This document shows positions 2,790 to 36,389 of a stretch of 64,000 nucleotides of DNA, piece by piece. How positions within the stretch are numbered: position 1 is the first letter of the stretch; each line of letters begins with the position of its first letter. This stretch comes from Actinomycetota bacterium. GTDB lineage: Bacteria > Actinomycetota > Thermoleophilia > Solirubrobacterales > 70-9. The stretch lies in NCBI GenBank assembly GCA_018268675.1, contig JAFDWB010000089.1, positions 1-64,000 of the forward strand. Reading direction: 5' to 3'. The position numbers and the translations under genes were made by a program. The notes under the pieces were generated by a model. The model saw only the letters and a list, made by a program, of their open reading frames with translations, was not told the origin of the DNA and made no database searches.

Positions 2790-4028
2790 GTGGGATCGGT
2801 CGCGGTGAAAGAAGGAGTCGATCCGGCGCGCTGGCAGCGACGGTTGCTCCCCGGCTCGATGGTCGACGGGCCCGACGCCCGGCGCAGCCTCCGCGACTGG
2901 GGCGTCGACGCGCTGGTCACCGTCGTCGCGCTGGGCCTCGGGGTGATCGCCCTCCACGACACCTGGGGCGCGCACGGGACCGCCGCCTGGGTCATCGACA
3001 TCGCCCTCGGGGTCGCCTCGCTCGTCGCGCTCTGGGAGCGTCGCCGCCACCCGGTCGGCGTGGCCGCGTTCGTGATCCCGGCCTCGGCCGTCTCGGCGCT
3101 CGCGGGCGGCGCCGGGCTCGCCGTCCTCTTCAACGCCGCGATCCGCTGCGACCGCCGGTCCCTGGCCTGGATCACCCTCGCCTCCGTCGGCGCCTCGATC
3201 GCCTACGGCCTGCTCTACGCGAGCAGCGGGGCCAACGCCCGCGACAACATCTTGGCCGGCCTGCTGCTGTTCGGGATCGCGATCGGCTGGGGGCTCTTCG
3301 TGCGGGTGCGGCGCGACCTCGTCGACTCGCTGCGCGAGCGGGCGGAGCGGCTCGAGGAGGAGGGCCGGCTGCGGGCGGACCAGGCCCGGGCGGCGGAGCG
3401 GGAGCGGATCGCGCGGGAGATGCACGACGTGCTCGCCCACCGGCTCTCGCTGCTCAGCCTGCACGCGGGGGCGCTCGAATTCCGGCCCGGCGCGCCGCCC
3501 GCCGAGGTGGCCGCCACCGCCGCCGTCGTCCGCGAGGCGGCGGCCGCGGCGCTCGAGGAGCTCCGCGACGTCGTCGGGGTGCTGCGCGAGGGGACCGACG
3601 CCGACACCCGCCGGCCGCAGCCGACCCTGGCCGACCTGCCGACGCTGATCGAGGAGTCGCGGGCGGCGGGGATGCGGATCGAGGCCGAGCTCGACCTGCC
3701 GACGGAGGGAGAGGACGCGGGCGCGGCGGCGGTCGGGCGGACCGCGTTCCGGGTCGTCCAGGAGGGCCTCACCAACGCGCGCAAGCACGCCCCCGGGACG
3801 CTGGTGCGCGTGCGGGTCGCGGCATCAGCGGACGGGCTGACGGTCGCGGTCCACAACCGGGCGCCGGTGGCGCCGGCCCCCGCGCCCGCGCTGCCGGGGG
3901 CGGGCAGCGGGCTGATCGGCCTCGGCGAGCGGGTCGAGCTGGTGGGCGGGGAGCTCCGCCACGAGGTCGCCGCCGACGGTGACTTCCTGCTCGTGGCGAC
4001 GCTGCCCTGGGAGCGACGCGGGCGATGA
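2790..4028 (+). CDS. Sensor histidine kinase, NarL/DesK-type partner
   Basis: A roughly 412-residue membrane kinase. Residues 25-175 carry five or six hydrophobic helices, followed by a coiled coil (LRERAERLEEEGRLRAD) and a HisKA_3 dimerisation domain, where EMHDVLAHRLS contains the phosphoacceptor His. The HATPase domain follows, with VVQEGLTNARKHAP (N box) and GLIGLGERVELVGG (G box). GTG codons at 2784, 2790 and 2802 are all possible starts; 2790 is preferred because a TACGCT box ends six bases before it. It overlaps the response regulator by ATGA. The divergent exporter genes are the probable target. Confidence 0.88.
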   Translation: MGSVAVKEGVDPARWQRRLLPGSMVDGPDARRSLRDWGVDALVTVVALGLGVIALHDTWGAHGTAAWVIDIALGVASLVALWERRRHPVGVAAFVIPASAVSALAGGAGLAVLFNAAIRCDRRSLAWITLASVGASIAYGLLYASSGANARDNILAGLLLFGIAIGWGLFVRVRRDLVDSLRERAERLEEEGRLRADQARAAERERIAREMHDVLAHRLSLLSLHAGALEFRPGAPPAEVAATAAVVREAAAAALEELRDVVGVLREGTDADTRRPQPTLADLPTLIEESRAAGMRIEAELDLPTEGEDAGAAAVGRTAFRVVQEGLTNARKHAPGTLVRVRVAASADGLTVAVHNRAPVAPAPAPALPGAGSGLIGLGERVELVGGELRHEVAADGDFLLVATLPWERRGR

Positions 4029-10639: not shown

Positions 10640-10691
10640 ACGCGCTGCAGTACTTGGTGTCGCCAGGACGACACCAATCACTGCAGCGCGT
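10640..10691. terminator. Long imperfect hairpin between kbl and the HAD remnant
   Basis: Arms of 23 bases pair (ACGCGCTGCAGT.. with its complement at 10669-10691) around a six-base loop CCAGGA, with only a two-base mismatch in the middle of the stem. There is no T-run on either side. It can end kbl transcripts, and it also marks the exact place where the HAD gene on the other strand stops making sense. Confidence 0.65.
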
Positions 10692-12533: not shown

Positions 12534-12578
12534 GCCCCTCGACGCTTGTAACCCATAGGGCGACAAGCGTCGAGGGGC
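12534..12578. terminator. Perfect 16-bp-arm hairpin directly after the CoA-transferase stop
   Basis: Arms GCCCCTCGACGCTTGT (12534-12549) and its exact complement (12563-12578) surround a 13-base loop. It begins one base after the stop codon of the CoA-transferase gene on the minus strand. No T-tract follows. It is a likely transcript end and abuts the acyl-CoA dehydrogenase remnant. Confidence 0.65.
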
Positions 12579-13694
12579 TTACTCGGATGGCTCTTCGGGG
12601 AGGCGGGGTGGGGCGGTGCGGTAGGTCGGGGGGGTGGCGGAGAGGCGGATCGGGTTGCGGGTGAGGGAGACGGTGCCGCCGTCCTCGCGGGGGACGGCCA
12701 CGGTCGGGGCGAGGCCGATCTGCTCGGCGAAGGCGAAGGCGGCGCCGAGGTCGTTGACGGTGCCGGCGGGGACGCGGCGGGCGAGGAGGGTCGATGCCCA
12801 GTCGGTGGCGGGGCGGGCGGCGAGGAGGCGGTTCAGCTCGGCGCCGAGGGCGTCGCGGTTGGCGACCCGGTCGGGGTTGGTGGCGAAGCGGGGGTCGCTG
12901 GCGAGGGCGGGCTCGCCGAGCTCCTCGCAGAGGGTCGCGAACTGGCGGTCGTTGCCGACCGCGAGGACCAGCTCGCCGGCGGCGGTCGGGTAGACCTCGT
13001 AGGGGGAGATGCTGGGGTGGCGGTTGCCGAGGCGCTTCGGGACGACGCCGGCGATGGTGTAGGCGGAGCCCTGGTTCACCATCGAGGCGAGCAGGGCCGA
13101 GAAGAGGTCGACCTCGACCAGCTGGCCCTCGCCGCTCGATTCGCGGTGGCGGAGCGCGGCGAGGATGCCGACCGTGGCGAAGAGGCCCGCCAACACGTCG
13201 ACCAGGGCGACGCCGACCTTCATCGGCTCCCCCCCGGCCTCGCCGGTGACGCTCATCAGGCCGCCGAGCGCCTGGATCAGAAGGTCGTACCCGGGCAGCT
13301 CGGCGCCGCCCGACCCGCTGCCGAAGCCGGTGACCGAGCAGTAGACGAGCCGCGGGTTGTCGGCGCGCAGGGTCTCGTAGTCGAGGCCCTTGGCCGCCAT
13401 CAGCCCGGGGCGGAAGTTCTCCACCACCACGTCGGCCTCGCGGGCGCGCCGGCGCAGGTCGGCGACGCCCTCCTCGGTCCCCAGGTCGACGACGATGCTC
13501 GACTTGTTGCGGTTCACCGACTGGAAGTAGGTCGCCTCGCCGCGATCGTCATAAGGGGGGCCCCAGGCGCGGGTCTCGTCGCCTCCCCCGGGCCGCTCGA
13601 CCTTGGTCACCTCGGCGCCGAGGTCGGCGAGCATCATCGTCGCGAAAGGCCCGGCGAGGACGCGCGAGAAGTCAAGAATCTTGAGCGGACCCAG
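12579..13694 (-). CDS. CaiB/BaiF class III CoA-transferase, probably glutarate CoA-transferase
   Basis: A roughly 371-residue class III CoA-transferase. Motifs are [73 protein letters not shown] and [20 protein letters not shown], whose Asp is the nucleophile that forms the acyl anhydride. Divergent transcription from a glutaryl-CoA dehydrogenase gene suggests a SUGCT-like role, making glutaryl-CoA from glutarate. The start is uncertain: the conserved N-terminus begins at CTG 13694, and no ATG, GTG or TTG lies in frame between it and an upstream T-rich stretch. Confidence 0.85.
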
Positions 13695-14951: not shown

Positions 14952-15814
14952 GCGGCGGGATCGAGAGGGTCGGCGTCGTCGGCGGCGGCATCATGGGGAC
15001 CGGCATCGCCGAGGTCTGCGCCCGCGCGGGCCTGCCGGTGACGCTGGTCGAGGTGACGCCGGAGCGGGCCGAGGGGGCACGCGCGGCGGTCGAGGCCTCG
15101 GTCGGCAAAGCGGTGCGGCGCGGGCTGCTGGAGGAGGCCGACGCGGCCGACGCGCTCGAGCGCCTCGCCTACGCCGACGATCTCGCCGCGCTCGCCGACG
15201 CCTCGCTCGTGGTCGAGGCGGTGGTCGAGGACCACGACACCAAGCGCGACATCTTCGTCCGCCTCTGCGAGGTGGTCTCCGATCCCGACGCGATCCTCGC
15301 CTCGAACACGTCCTCGATCCCGATCGTCGACCTCGCCGCGGCGTCCGGCAAGCGCGGCGACCACGTCCTCGGCCTGCACTTCTTCAACCCGGTGCCGGTG
15401 CTCTCGCTGGTCGAGATCATCCCTTCGCTCTTGACCGGCGAGGAGGTGGTCGACCGCGCCCGCGAGTTCGTCACCGGGACGCTCGGCAAGGACCCGATCG
15501 TCGCCCCGGACCGCGCCGGCTTCACCGTCAACGCGCTGCTGATCCCCTACCTGCTGGCGGCGATCCGGATGTTCGAACAGGGGCTCGCCTCGGCCGAGGA
15601 CATCGACGAGGGGATGGTCAAGGGCTGCGCCCACCCGATGGGGCCGCTGGCGCTGGCCGACCTGATCGGGCTCGACACGGTGAGCGCGGTCGCCGAGACG
15701 CTTTATGCGGAGCACCGCGAGCAGCTCTTCGCGCCGCCGCCGCTGCTGCAGCGGCTGATCTCGGCGGGGATGTTGGGGCGCAAGAGCGGCCGGGGGCTCT
15801 ACAGCTATGGCTAG
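14948..15814 (+). CDS. 3-hydroxybutyryl-CoA dehydrogenase
   Basis: A 288-residue NAD-dependent dehydrogenase of the short HBD type. The N-terminal Rossmann motif is VGVVGGGIMGTGIAEVCARA; then come VEAVVEDHDTKRDIF, ASNTSSIPIVDLA, LGLHFFNPVPVLSLVEII (catalytic His) and the C-terminal GCAHPMGPLALADLIGLD. It oxidises (S)-3-hydroxybutyryl-CoA to acetoacetyl-CoA, the step after crotonase in glutaryl-CoA breakdown; the crotonase itself is not in the window. The start is TTG 14948, overlapping the gcdH stop as TTGA. Confidence 0.9.
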   Translation: MSGGIERVGVVGGGIMGTGIAEVCARAGLPVTLVEVTPERAEGARAAVEASVGKAVRRGLLEEADAADALERLAYADDLAALADASLVVEAVVEDHDTKRDIFVRLCEVVSDPDAILASNTSSIPIVDLAAASGKRGDHVLGLHFFNPVPVLSLVEIIPSLLTGEEVVDRAREFVTGTLGKDPIVAPDRAGFTVNALLIPYLLAAIRMFEQGLASAEDIDEGMVKGCAHPMGPLALADLIGLDTVSAVAETLYAEHREQLFAPPPLLQRLISAGMLGRKSGRGLYSYG

Positions 15815-16493
15815 CGGCGGGGTCGTTCTCCAGGCGCGGGCGCGACCCGGGACCACCGCCCAGCACGCCGTCGACGAACTGCGGCGGGCGCTGATCGAGG
15901 GGCGGCTGGCGCCCGGTGAGCGGGTGCGCCAGGAGGAGATCGCCGCCTCGCTCGGGATCAGCGTCGCGCCGGTGCGCGAGGCGCTCGCGATCCTCGAGCA
16001 GGAGGGCCAGGTCACCTACCGGGCGCGGCGCGGGTACTTCGTCACCGAGCTCGACGTTGCCGACCTGCGCGAGATCTACGAGCTGCGCGCGATCCTCGAG
16101 GAGCGGGCGGCGCGCCACGCCCTGCCGCTGGTGGACGAGGAGGCGATGGACCGCATCCTGCTCGCCGCCAAGGACTGCGCCGACGCGGTCGAGAACGAAG
16201 ACGTGGCCGCCGAGCTGGAGGCGAACCGCCGCTTCCACCTCGCCCTCCTCGATTCCCCCTCCCAGACCCACGCCCTGCGCCTCGTGCGCCTCCTCTGGGA
16301 CTCGACCGAAACGTACCGGGCGATGTACTACAACGCCGCCGACGCCCGCCGGGCCGCGGTCGACGCCCACGACCGCATCGTCGCCGCCGTCCGCGCCGCC
16401 GATCCCGACCTCCTGGTCAAGGAACTGGACCGCCATCGGGGCGAAGCGCTGACGCGGCTCGAAGCGGTGCTGTCGGGGTCGGGGGCGGAGTAG
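15807..16493 (+). CDS. GntR-family transcriptional regulator (FCD/FadR subfamily)
   Basis: A 228-residue regulator with an N-terminal winged helix (AVDELRRALIEGRLAPGERV, QEEIAASLGISVAPVREALA, then the wing VTYRARRGYFV) and an all-helical FCD ligand domain (LREIYELRAILEERAARHAL, NRRFHLALLDSPSQTHAL, AVDAHDRIVAAVRAAD) with the His/Asp pattern of metal-binding FCD proteins. It overlaps the 3-hydroxyacyl-CoA dehydrogenase gene by eight bases and so is the last gene of the gcdH operon. It probably represses that operon in response to an acid or acyl-CoA; the palindrome at 13722 is its candidate site. Confidence 0.92.
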   Translation: MASGGVVLQARARPGTTAQHAVDELRRALIEGRLAPGERVRQEEIAASLGISVAPVREALAILEQEGQVTYRARRGYFVTELDVADLREIYELRAILEERAARHALPLVDEEAMDRILLAAKDCADAVENEDVAAELEANRRFHLALLDSPSQTHALRLVRLLWDSTETYRAMYYNAADARRAAVDAHDRIVAAVRAADPDLLVKELDRHRGEALTRLEAVLSGSGAE

Positions 16494-16543
16494 GGACGGG
16501 GGCCCGCCGGCCTGCGCGGGCTGCGCCGTCCGGGCACGGGTGC

Positions 16544-16582
16544 GTTCGCAGTTCTCGTCGCCATCCGACGATTACTGCGAAC
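16544..16582. other. Imperfect hairpin 1 of 3 in a convergent intergenic region
   Basis: Arms of 17 bases (GTTCGCAGT.. at 16544-16560 and its complement at 16566-16582) pair around the loop CCATC with a two-base mismatch in mid-stem. It lies between the convergent GntR and DUF1254 genes. No T-tract; likely a terminator-like structure. Confidence 0.6.
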
Positions 16583-16604
16583 TCACCGGGGGGTCGACCC
16601 CTGC

Positions 16605-16643
16605 GGTGTTCCTTACTTGCCACATGCGCAAGTAAGGAACACC
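16605..16643. other. Perfect hairpin 2 of 3 in the same gap
   Basis: Arms GGTGTTCCTTACTTGC (16605-16620) and its exact complement (16628-16643) surround a seven-base loop. The stem is AT-richer than the surrounding DNA, so the pairing is not a by-product of GC content. Confidence 0.6.
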
Positions 16644-16653
16644 GGAAGGCCGA

Positions 16654-16707
16654 GGCGCGCCCGTCGCCCTCATAACCAACCGAAGCATGAGGGGGAACGG
16701 GCGCGCC
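16654..16707. other. Imperfect hairpin 3 of 3 in the same gap
   Basis: Arms at 16654-16673 and 16687-16707 pair as GGCGCGCCCGT plus CCCTCAT with an asymmetric two-against-three base bulge between the two helices, around a 13-base loop. Together with the two preceding hairpins it fills most of the 257-base gap 16494-16750, in which no gene is seen. Confidence 0.55.
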
Positions 16708-16750
16708 GTCGGGCGGCAGCCGGCAGCGCCGCGACGGCTGAGACAGGCGC

Positions 16751-18073
16751 TCAGGCCTTGCGGACCGCCGGGGGGCGCCAGTCGCCGTCGAGGGCGGGGA
16801 CGTCGGGCTCGTAGAGGCGCAGGCAGAGGTTGAACGAGCCGGTCGGGGATGGGAGCCAGTTGGAGGATCCCTCGGCCGGTTCGGCGGCCGAGATCTGGAG
16901 GTCGAGGGAGCCGTCGGGGTTGGGCTTCAGGTCGTCGCGGTCGCCGATCGCGAAGCGGTCGATCGGGTTGGCGACCTGGAAGCCCTCCTCGTCGTACATC
17001 GTCAGCGACCAGAACGCCTTCGCGGGCGGCAGTGCGCCGGCGTCGAAGTGGAGGACGTAGGAGTTCGAGCCGTCGTAGGGCTCGCCGTCGGCGTCGAAGT
17101 AGGAGACCGGGTAGATCGCGTCCTCGGGGAGGTTGGCGCCGAGCCCGATCAGGTCGATGCAGGCGCGCCGCAGGTAGTTCGTCCCCCACGCCCCCATCGA
17201 CTCGACCAAGGAGATCCAGCCGTCGACCGGCGCCGCCAGGGTCTGCTGGCGGGCGGTGATGCGTTTGATCGCGGTCGGGACCGCCGCTTCCAGCGCCGCG
17301 CGCGCCTCGGGCGCGGCCGCGGCGAGGTCGAAGGACTGCCCGGCGACGAGCCCGAGCCGCGCCATCCGCGCGAGGACCGGGTGGTCGTTCAGGTGGGGCG
17401 CGTTCCCCTTCATCAGCTCCGCCGCCTCGGCGAAGAACGCGGCCGCGTCGAGCCCGAAGACCTGCCGCAGCGGCGGGGTGTCGTCGTCGACAGCGGCGTC
17501 GACCGTGCCCTGCGGCGTCGCCGCCGGCCCGGGCCAGGCGCCCAGCGCCGTGATCGCGAGCTGGTCCTGGAACGCGTGCACCTCGTCATACGTCGCCGGG
17601 CTCGCCTTGGCGCGGCTGATGATCCAGACCCACGGCGTCGGCGCGTCGATCCGCTCGACGCCGTCCGGCAGCGCCCCGTCCCAACCCGGCCCGCAGAGCG
17701 CGTAGTGGCCCGCCCCGGTTCCGGTCGTCCGCGGCCCCGGGCAGGCGAAGATGTCCGACCACGCGTCGTACATCGGCAGCACGTAGTAGAGATCGGTCTC
17801 CGGCACCGAGACGATCCGCGGTTCCTCGCGCAGGTCGAGCCAGGCGGGCGAGTAGAGCGTGTCGAAGTTGGGCTTGACCACGTCCTTGAAATCGGCGGGC
17901 GGGAACTCGCGGATGTGGACGAAGGCGTCGACCGGCCCACGCCCGATCCGGTCCCCCGGCGCCATCACGTTCGTCATCTGCAGCCGCGTCCGCTCCATCA
18001 GGACCAGCGGGTAGAGGTAGATGTAGGCGTCGACGGCGATCTGGTCGGCGGTCGGGCGGTCCAGCGTGGGCAT
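16751..18073 (-). CDS. DUF1254/DUF1214 domain protein
   Basis: A 440-residue soluble protein of the DUF1254-DUF1214 family. The N-terminal domain has AVDAYIYLYPLVLMERTRLQ and NFDTLYSPAWLDLREEPRIV; the C-terminal domain has FDADGEPYDGSNSYVLHFDA, FWSLTMYDEEGFQVANPIDR and SNWLPSPTGSFNLCLRLYEP. The function of the family is not established. ATG 18073 is chosen for the strong AGAAGGAG seven bases upstream and because the conserved domain starts soon after. It has no signal peptide from this start. It is the last gene before the convergent GntR regulator. Confidence 0.87.
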   Translation of the reverse strand: MPTLDRPTADQIAVDAYIYLYPLVLMERTRLQMTNVMAPGDRIGRGPVDAFVHIREFPPADFKDVVKPNFDTLYSPAWLDLREEPRIVSVPETDLYYVLPMYDAWSDIFACPGPRTTGTGAGHYALCGPGWDGALPDGVERIDAPTPWVWIISRAKASPATYDEVHAFQDQLAITALGAWPGPAATPQGTVDAAVDDDTPPLRQVFGLDAAAFFAEAAELMKGNAPHLNDHPVLARMARLGLVAGQSFDLAAAAPEARAALEAAVPTAIKRITARQQTLAAPVDGWISLVESMGAWGTNYLRRACIDLIGLGANLPEDAIYPVSYFDADGEPYDGSNSYVLHFDAGALPPAKAFWSLTMYDEEGFQVANPIDRFAIGDRDDLKPNPDGSLDLQISAAEPAEGSSNWLPSPTGSFNLCLRLYEPDVPALDGDWRPPAVRKA

Positions 18074-18120
18074 TCGTTCTCCTTCTCTGGTTGCGGGCGG
18101 GGAGCGCACGATAAGGCCCT

Positions 18121-18161
18121 GGCAGAACCGGGGGCGCGTCATACCGAAACCCGGCTCTGGC
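18121..18161 (-). terminator. Imperfect hairpin downstream of the ABC ATPase gene
   Basis: GGCAGAACCGGG at 18121-18132 pairs with 18150-18161 with two mismatches around a 17-base loop. It lies 28 bases beyond the ATPase stop on the minus strand, so it probably marks the end of the 18-28 kb operon. No T-tract. Confidence 0.45.
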
Positions 18162-18188
18162 CCGCGGGGAAAGAGGTCGATCACCGTG

Positions 18189-34938: not shown

Positions 34939-36389
34939 CCGAACAGCACGTTCACGTTCTTCGGCTCGGCGTATGACTGGAGCTCCTCGATCCCCTCCTC
35001 GCGGCCGACGCCGGAGTTCTTCACGCCGCCGTAGGGGGCGCCGAGGAAGTGGCGGGAGGAGTCGTTGACCCAGACGTAGCCGGCCTCGACGTCGCGGGCG
35101 AAGGAGTGCGCGATCCGCAGGTCGCCGGTGAAGACGGCGGCGGTCAGCCCGTAGGAGACCGAGTTGGCGATCGCCACCGCCTCCTCGTAGTCGCGGAACT
35201 TGATCGCGGTCAGGACCGGGCCGAAGATCTCCTCCTGGGCGAGGCGCGAGTCGGGCTCGACGCCGGCGAAGAGGGTCGGCCGGACGAAGCGCTCGGCCAT
35301 CCCCTCGACCGCGACCGGGCCGCCCCCGGCGCGCACCTCGGCGCCCTCCGCCCGCCCCAGCTCGAGGTAGGAGAGGACCTTTTCGTACTGGCCCTGGTGG
35401 ACGATCGCACCGGTGTCGGTGCTCTCGTCCGCGGGCGGCCCGGAGCGCATCCCCTCGAGCCGCGCGGCGAGGCGCTCGACGAACTCGTCGTGCAGGGACT
35501 CGTGGACCAGGAGGCGGGAGGTCGAGCCGCACGACTGGCCCTGCCAGGTGAAGTTCATCCCCCGCACGGCGCCGTCGACGGCGCGCTCGAGGTCGGCGTC
35601 GGGGAACACCGCGATCGGGTTTTTGCCGCCCAGCTCGAGCGTCACCGACTTGACCACCCGCTCCGCCGCGCGGCGCTGGATCGAGAGGCCGATCGCGACC
35701 GAGCCGATGAAGGCGAGCCGGCGCACGCCGGGGTGGGCGACGAGCGCGTCGCCGGCCTCCGCGCCGAGCCCGGTGACGACGTTCAGCACGCCCGCCGGGA
35801 AGGTCTCGGCGATCATCTCCGCCAGCCGCAGGGCCGAGAGCGAGGTGTGCTCGGAGGGCTTCAGGACGACGGTGTTGCCGGCGATCAGCGGCGCCGCGAT
35901 CTTCGAGGCGGCGAACATCAGGGGGTGGTTGAAGGGGATGATCCGGCCGACCACGCCGAACGGCTCGCGCAGCGTGTAGTTGACCCGGTCGCTGGTGGTC
36001 GGGATCGTCTCGCCGCGCAGCTGCAACGCCAGGCCGGCGAAGTACCGCATCTGGGCGACCGCGATGTGCGCGTCGTTGCGCATCTCCTTGATCGGGCTGC
36101 CGTTGTCGGCGACGTCGAGCGCCGCCAGCTCCTCGGCGCCCTCCTCGACCCGGTCGGCGAGCGCCTCCAGGCAGGCGGCCCGCCCGGTCGCCGCCATCGC
36201 CCGCCAGGCCGGGAAGGCCGCGGTCGCCGCGGCGACGGCGCGGTCGACATCCTCGGCGCGCCCGCGGGGGAACCGCCCGAGCAGCTCGCCGGTCGCCGGG
36301 TTGTGCGCGGGCAGCGTCTCGCCGGCGGCCGCGGCGCACCGCTCGCCGCCGATCAGCATCGCGCCCTCGTGGACCTCGGTGGCGCTCAC
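34935..36389 (-). CDS. Aldehyde dehydrogenase (NAD(P)+)
   Basis: A 484-residue aldehyde dehydrogenase: [20 protein letters not shown] (cofactor cleft), [38 protein letters not shown], catalytic Glu in [20 protein letters not shown], catalytic Cys in [17 protein letters not shown] and [18 protein letters not shown]. The GTG start at 36389 overlaps the stop of the upstream DapA-family gene (GTGA). It probably oxidises the aldehyde released by the lyase encoded just upstream. Confidence 0.93.

What the first reader, a model, noticed from the sequence alone, without database searches (positions are those of the whole stretch)
16494..16750. Three different hairpins in tandem between convergent genes
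Three unrelated stems are packed into 164 bases between the GntR and DUF1254 genes, spaced 22 and 10 bases apart. One or two would suffice for termination. Triple stacking suggests an expressed structured RNA or repeated insertion of palindromic units.
Basis: seen in the sequence. Interest (0 to 1): 0.5.

Follow-up and report, generated by a model that had tools for sequence, protein, structure and literature searches.

The report
Mosaic of dispersed palindromic repeats
The three hairpins are copies of three palindromic repeat families that are scattered through the genome of an uncultured actinobacterium and combined in different ways at the ends of genes, so this is a new lineage-specific version of a known kind of small dispersed repeat, not an RNA made for this locus.

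Summary
Observation confirmed: three unrelated stems (A 16544-16582, B 16605-16643, C 16654-16707; gaps 22 and 10 bases) fill the gap between a GntR/FCD gene and a DUF1254 gene. They are no chance: fold z is -8.0 (RNA +), -8.6 (RNA -), -9.6 (DNA).

Each stem is one copy of an interspersed family. In the window's genome A has 127 exact-arm copies of fixed length (127 of 134), B about 34, C at least 76. The families combine differently from site to site. C bounds composites: of 17 C pairs under 6 kb apart, 17 are inverted, with 102-377 bases inside. Strong hairpins sit in 15 of 38 convergent gaps against 2 of 52 divergent ones, and in 2 of 33 convergent gaps of a relative without A. A occurs in 7 of 232 genomes of the order, six of them in one genus, with site-by-site presence/absence.

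The layout is that of BIMEs/REPs, but the REP tag and the REP transposase (PF01797; 0 of 12 genus genomes) are missing: a BIME/MITE-like mosaic whose mobilising enzyme is unknown.

The parts
15807..16493 (+). flanking gene: GntR-family regulator with FCD domain
   Evidence: PF00392 3.7e-16 and PF07729 6.8e-18
16494..16534 (.). left flank; imperfect palindrome in its first 38 bases (GGACGG...CCGTCC); no left-hand C unit was found here
   Evidence: DNA fold; no C- hit left of A in the window
16539..16587 (.). palindromic unit A; fixed-length core GTTCGCA-N25-TGCGAAC at 16544-16582
   Evidence: inverted repeat; 127 copies of that exact arm spacing in the genome
16604..16644 (.). palindromic unit B (CGGTGTTCCTTACTTG ... 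CAAGTAAGGAACACCG)
   Evidence: inverted repeat; R2 match 66.2 bits
16654..16707 (+). palindromic unit C, + orientation (the right-hand end unit of composites)
   Evidence: inverted repeat; R3 match 76.1 bits
16712..16724 (+). terminal motif GGCGGCAGCCGGC that follows C and ends the homology
   Evidence: CAGCCGG within 30 bases behind C in 17 of 27 copies matched by a strict C regex; the window copy has the motif but a 1-base insertion keeps it out of that regex
16751..18184 (-). flanking gene: DUF1254/DUF1214 protein
   Evidence: PF06863 2.2e-41 and PF06742 5.6e-34

Best explanation
16535-16724 is one copy, lacking a left-hand C unit, of a composite made of dispersed palindromic units (A-B-C). 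Shown: each unit is a multi-copy family; stems are kept by paired changes (A, C); units combine in many orders; C units bound composites as inverted ends; the elements gather at gene 3' ends and are nearly absent between divergent genes; exact A copies number from 0 to 156 inside one genus. Inferred: the units spread as non-autonomous DNA (a BIME/MITE-like element moved in trans, or by recombination at hairpins), and persist where they do no harm, behind genes. At this locus the cluster is most likely a passive insertion that may incidentally block read-through from both convergent genes. The mobilising enzyme is not identified and is not the REP transposase family.
For: Own genome: 120 BLAST matches to the 257 bases at E<=10, with 40 of 286 first-look candidates scored. 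A: 127 exact-arm copies, of 134 with any spacing of 10-40; the reversed control pattern gives 0. C: 76 distinct sites, 17 pairs under 6 kb, 17 of 17 in (-,+) order, inner distance 102-377, none of gene size. B: 68 matches, about 34 sites as both strands are hit. Mosaic order: among 39 fetched loci A, B and C occur in many combinations. Paired changes: A covariation 0.232 against 0.128 in shuffles and at most 0.070 when slid; C 0.109 against 0.050. Placement, hairpins of score >=14: convergent 15 of 38 gaps, tandem 15 of 145, divergent 2 of 52 (p 2.3e-5 conv vs div). Relatives: G014 2 of 33 convergent gaps, G009 4 of 21. Presence/absence: behind gltB, G001 has an A unit filling the convergent gap; G005, G009 and G003, with a like neighbour judged by eye, have no A.
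Against: No transposase or autonomous copy was found: PF01797 gives 0 of 12 genus genomes, and no C pair has a gene-sized interior (candidates capped at 150). No target-site duplication in the 3 composites compared by eye. The window's own gene pair was not found in relatives, so there is no empty site for this very locus. B shows almost no paired change. Positions 5/45 and 13/37 of A pair no better than at random, so parts of A are not kept as a helix.
Confidence: 0.82

Rival explanations
1. A dedicated bidirectional transcription terminator block between two convergent genes, each stem being a terminator selected for this job.
For: Strong enrichment in convergent gaps (15 of 38) and near-absence from divergent ones (2 of 52); in G001 both A units sit in convergent gaps, one of them filling a 46-base gap behind gltB.
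Against: No T-tract (0 terminator-like sites in 2.5 kb, 0.4 expected). A relative without exact A copies has strong hairpins in 2 of 33 convergent gaps. The same gltB gap lacks A in G005, G009 and G003. The units come in composites whose make-up changes from site to site.
Confidence: 0.1
2. An expressed, structured non-coding RNA of its own.
For: Very stable fold on the + strand, z -8.0.
Against: Equally stable on the - strand, z -8.6, as palindromic DNA would be; no Rfam family at its cut-off; no sigma-70-like promoter in 15500-18000 (weak evidence in this lineage); unit order not kept between copies.
Confidence: 0.04
3. Integron attC sites, single or in a row.
For: Imperfect palindromes of like size with conserved GTT/AAC arms.
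Against: In A the order is GTT...AAC; attC, as I recall its consensus, has RYYYAAC...GTTRRRY, the reverse. No cassettes lie between the hairpins. No integrase search was made.
Confidence: 0.02
4. DNA uptake sequences in inverted pairs, as at Neisseria terminators (recalled).
For: Inverted pairs of a fixed half-site at gene ends.
Against: The longer arm TG[AC]GTTCGCA is mostly found paired: 9 of 14 forward copies in 464 kb have a reverse partner within 75 bases; exact copies number in the hundreds, not thousands.
Confidence: 0.02

Closest known systems
REP / BIME (repetitive extragenic palindromes, bacterial interspersed mosaic elements) of enterobacteria and pseudomonads
   Same: High-copy intergenic palindromes, several types per genome, joined in inverted and mixed arrays, predominantly between convergent and unidirectional genes (PMC3733652, abstract and passages; PMC8266576, passages). 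E. coli REPs keep stem mismatches (PMC8266576, passages); A has mismatched positions too.
   Different: No GTAG tag at the stems and hardly any CGTC, no Y1 transposase (PF01797) in any of 12 genus genomes, stems of 16-22 pairs, about ten palindrome families in one genome (families named by eye).
REPIN (two inverted REPs forming a replicating unit)
   Same: C units come as inverted pairs, 17 of 17; REPINs are inverted REP doublets (PMC3116915, abstract and passages).
   Different: The interior is 102-377 bases with other, full hairpins; each C is itself a complete palindrome; no RAYT found.
MITEs (miniature inverted-repeat transposable elements)
   Same: Short, no gene, inverted ends (C plus GGCGGCAGCCGGC).
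   Different: No target-site duplication seen in 3 compared by eye, no parent transposon found, interior variable between copies.
BOX-type modular repeats of streptococci (recalled, not read here)
   Same: Modular make-up with end modules and optional inner modules.
   Different: Other sequences and hosts; not compared here.

Membership tests
REP superfamilies (GTAG/CGTC) | many copies of a short palindrome, mostly intergenic | tested here: met
   127 A, about 34 B, at least 76 C in 4.2 Mb; placement
REP superfamilies (GTAG/CGTC) | unpaired GTAG or CGTC at one end of the stem | tested here: not met
   GTAG/CTAC within 12 nt: 0 of 66, 0 of 46, 0 of 58 stem sides for A, B, C; CGTC/GACG 1 of 66, 1 of 46, 12 of 58
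REP superfamilies (GTAG/CGTC) | associated Y1 transposase (RAYT/TnpA-REP), for GTAG REPs | tested here: not met
   PF01797: 0 of 12 genus genomes, controls ring in 6 of 14
BIME | palindromic units joined in alternating/inverted orientation with linkers into mosaics | tested here: met
   15 of 35 hairpin-bearing gaps hold two or more; 17 of 17 C pairs inverted
BIME | the units are REPs (tagged) | tested here: not met
MITE | terminal inverted repeats around a non-coding interior | tested here: met
   coding potential of the interior judged by size only
MITE | target-site duplication and a parent transposase | tested here: inconclusive
   no duplication in 3 composites by eye; no gene-sized C pair among 17
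Intrinsic terminator | G+C-rich stem followed by a T-tract | tested here: not met
   0 found in 15500-18000, 0.4 expected
Integron attC | RYYYAAC ... GTTRRRY order of the core sites (consensus recalled) | tested here: not met
   A reads GTTCGCA...TGCGAAC
Known Rfam RNA | covariance-model match over the gathering score | tested here: not met
   4 weak hits, all far below cut-off

The most novel reading that the evidence does not exclude
A palindrome-mosaic mobile system that is not of the REP/RAYT kind: an unknown enzyme of this genus recognises folded or dyad DNA of fixed size (A: 39 bp with free inner stem) and moves or reshuffles single hairpins as modules, assembling composites bounded by inverted C (or J/K) units.
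Probability: 0.2. Interest if true: 0.7.

Novelty: new variant of a known kind. Interest (0 to 1): 0.45.

Why it matters
REP and BIME biology, in the papers seen here, rests mainly on proteobacteria and on one transposase family. Here an actinobacterial lineage has a system of the same layout with about ten palindrome families and no such transposase, with 0 to 156 exact A copies within one genus. It gives a second case in which to ask how palindromic repeats spread and why they collect behind genes, and it warns that covariation in this genus is not by itself a sign of a functional RNA.

Tried and rejected
Rfam: nothing at cut-off. Y1 transposase in own and genus genomes: none. Autonomous element between C pairs: none with a gene-sized interior. 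B-like hits in G006 near contig ends suggested an insertion sequence; the fetched stretches show long composites of palindromes instead; I did not scan their reading frames against Pfam. Empty site at the window's own gene pair: DUF1254 was found in 4 of 11 other genus genomes, with another neighbour on its 3' side each time (by eye), so no direct test. DNA-uptake reading and attC reading rejected. First gene calls had shadow genes and were replaced. The motif list used to name hairpin families was made by eye from the same hairpins, so its share of classified hairpins is not independent. The G008 sample (convergent 11 of 30, tandem 13 of 116, divergent 1 of 46) was chosen partly from contigs with A hits and is not used as a test. 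Paper searches for such repeats in Solirubrobacter or Thermoleophilia and for related terms listed no paper on them; only this open library was searched.

Full report
OBSERVATION. The gap 16494-16750 between a GntR/FCD gene (+) and a DUF1254/DUF1214 gene (-) holds three unrelated stems: A 16539-16587, B 16604-16644 (arms can be drawn out to 16599-16649) and C 16654-16707. The gap folds far better than shuffles on either strand and as DNA (z -8.0, -8.6, -9.6).

THE STEMS ARE REPEATS. A search of the window's own genome (4.2 Mb, 95 contigs) gave 120 matches at E<=10, with only 40 of 286 candidates scored. In 39 loci fetched around them the units appear alone or in many combinations. With exact arms, GTTCGCA-N25-TGCGAAC occurs 127 times, against 134 times for any spacing of 10-40, and the reversed control pattern 0 times: the A core is of nearly fixed length. 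The C model finds 145 matches at 76 distinct sites, from 150 scored candidates, so the number is a lower bound; 17 pairs lie less than 6 kb apart and all 17 are oriented (-,+), 102-377 bases apart. The B model finds 68 matches, about 34 sites. Behind C the motif CAGCCGG follows within 30 bases in 17 of 27 copies that fit a strict C pattern. The window copy is A+ B+ C+ with the terminal motif at 16712-16724 and no left-hand C.

MORE FAMILIES. A hairpin census of 464 kb of this genome (the window and 200 kb each of contigs C82 and C91, long contigs that were already known to hold copies) shows further palindrome families, and a second composite type with J, E, L and K units. Of 35 gaps with a hairpin of score 13 or more, 15 hold two or more. 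Units E, J and K recur in composites of G006, and E with hairpins of the J/K loop in G008.

PLACEMENT. With my own gene calls (repeated per genome), hairpins of score >=14 lie in 15 of 38 convergent, 15 of 145 tandem and 2 of 52 divergent gaps of 30 bases or more (Fisher conv vs div p 2.3e-5, conv vs tandem 7.7e-5). The same count in G014 (same family, no exact A copies) gives 2 of 33, 2 of 123 and 1 of 60; in G009 (same genus, no exact A copies) 4 of 21, 7 of 88 and 4 of 42, with no clear lean to convergent gaps. G000 against G014, convergent gaps: p 0.0016. Twelve hairpins in G000 fell inside called genes, some of which may be miscalled.

DISTRIBUTION. Exact A cores: G011 156, G000 127, G008 115, G003 59, G006 21, G001 2, and G019 of a sister genus 3; 7 of 232 genomes of the order. 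The looser A model rings in 12 of 12 genus genomes, down to 2 matches in G009, so weak relatives may be wider. BLAST with the window's DNA matched 12 of 61 genomes at E<=0.001, own included; the six outside the genus match only the G+C-rich C end. The window's own record may be left out of that scan, as the tool says.

CONSERVATION. A (54 copies, four species): covariation 0.232, shuffles 0.128, slid at most 0.070; the outer seven pairs are invariant because the regex chose them; inner pairs change on both sides, while positions 5/45 and 13/37 pair no better than by chance. C: two pairs switch on both sides in 12 and 11 of 27 rows. B hardly varies in the stem. Paired change here is shared by DNA palindromes and is not evidence of an RNA.

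SITE POLYMORPHISM. Behind gltB (named from its sequence, recalled; found in 11 of 12 genus genomes), G001 carries an A unit that fills the 46-base gap to a convergent gene. G005 and G009, and G003, with a like neighbour (by eye), have no A there; G003 has another, weaker palindrome. DUF1254 genes in G006, G007, G008 and G011 have other 3' neighbours and no such cluster (by eye).

COMPARISON. REPs carry an unpaired GTAG or CGTC tag and lie mostly between convergent and unidirectional genes (PMC3733652: abstract and found passages); BIMEs join REPs in inverse orientation, and E. coli TnpA-REP needs the tag and a stem bulge (PMC8266576: found passages); REPINs are inverted doublets (PMC3116915: found passages); PMC1525189 (found passages) also notes the convergent placement. 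Here the layout is met, the tag and the Y1 transposase are not. So it works like a BIME and is not filed as one.

VERDICT. A lineage-specific mosaic of palindromic repeats, BIME/MITE-like, moved by an unidentified means; at this locus most likely a passive insertion behind two genes. Mobility is inferred from copy number and presence/absence, not seen.

Noticed in passing
window 10640-10691: Another long palindrome (23-nt arms, 91%) between convergent genes, with the L-type arm CGCTGCAG...GGTGTCG seen elsewhere in the genome.
   Followed up: partly
window 12534-12578: Palindrome with 21-nt arms around a 3-nt centre, carrying the I-type arm GACGCTTGT, directly behind the 3' end of the gene 12579-13637.
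   Followed up: partly
L204-L215 (centre of each); also window genome C91:30063, 51042, 104180, 120106, 120657: Family M: a conserved core GGCGGAACAACAGCGGGGAGGTTCCGGCG inside stems whose outer part differs at each site yet pairs. 12 places at up to 3 mismatches, 6 on each strand. The pairing lines were shifted by a base, so pairing was judged by eye.
   Followed up: partly
L187-L196 (G006), about 1-2 kb around position 3000: A relative carries diverged repeat blocks of 1-2 kb built of several palindromes, including one 52-base palindrome, often near contig ends.
   Followed up: partly
C82:28976-29581, 35165-35901, 69690-70524, 115073-115671 of the window's genome: A second composite type (J, K, E, L units); J and K share a loop like CACAGCCTGCCAGG on different stems, also seen in G006 and G008.
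   Followed up: partly
A units, alignment A1 columns 5/45 and 13/37: Two positions of the half-site vary (A/C and G/C) on each side independently of pairing, as if the half-sites were read as sequence rather than as a helix.
   Followed up: no
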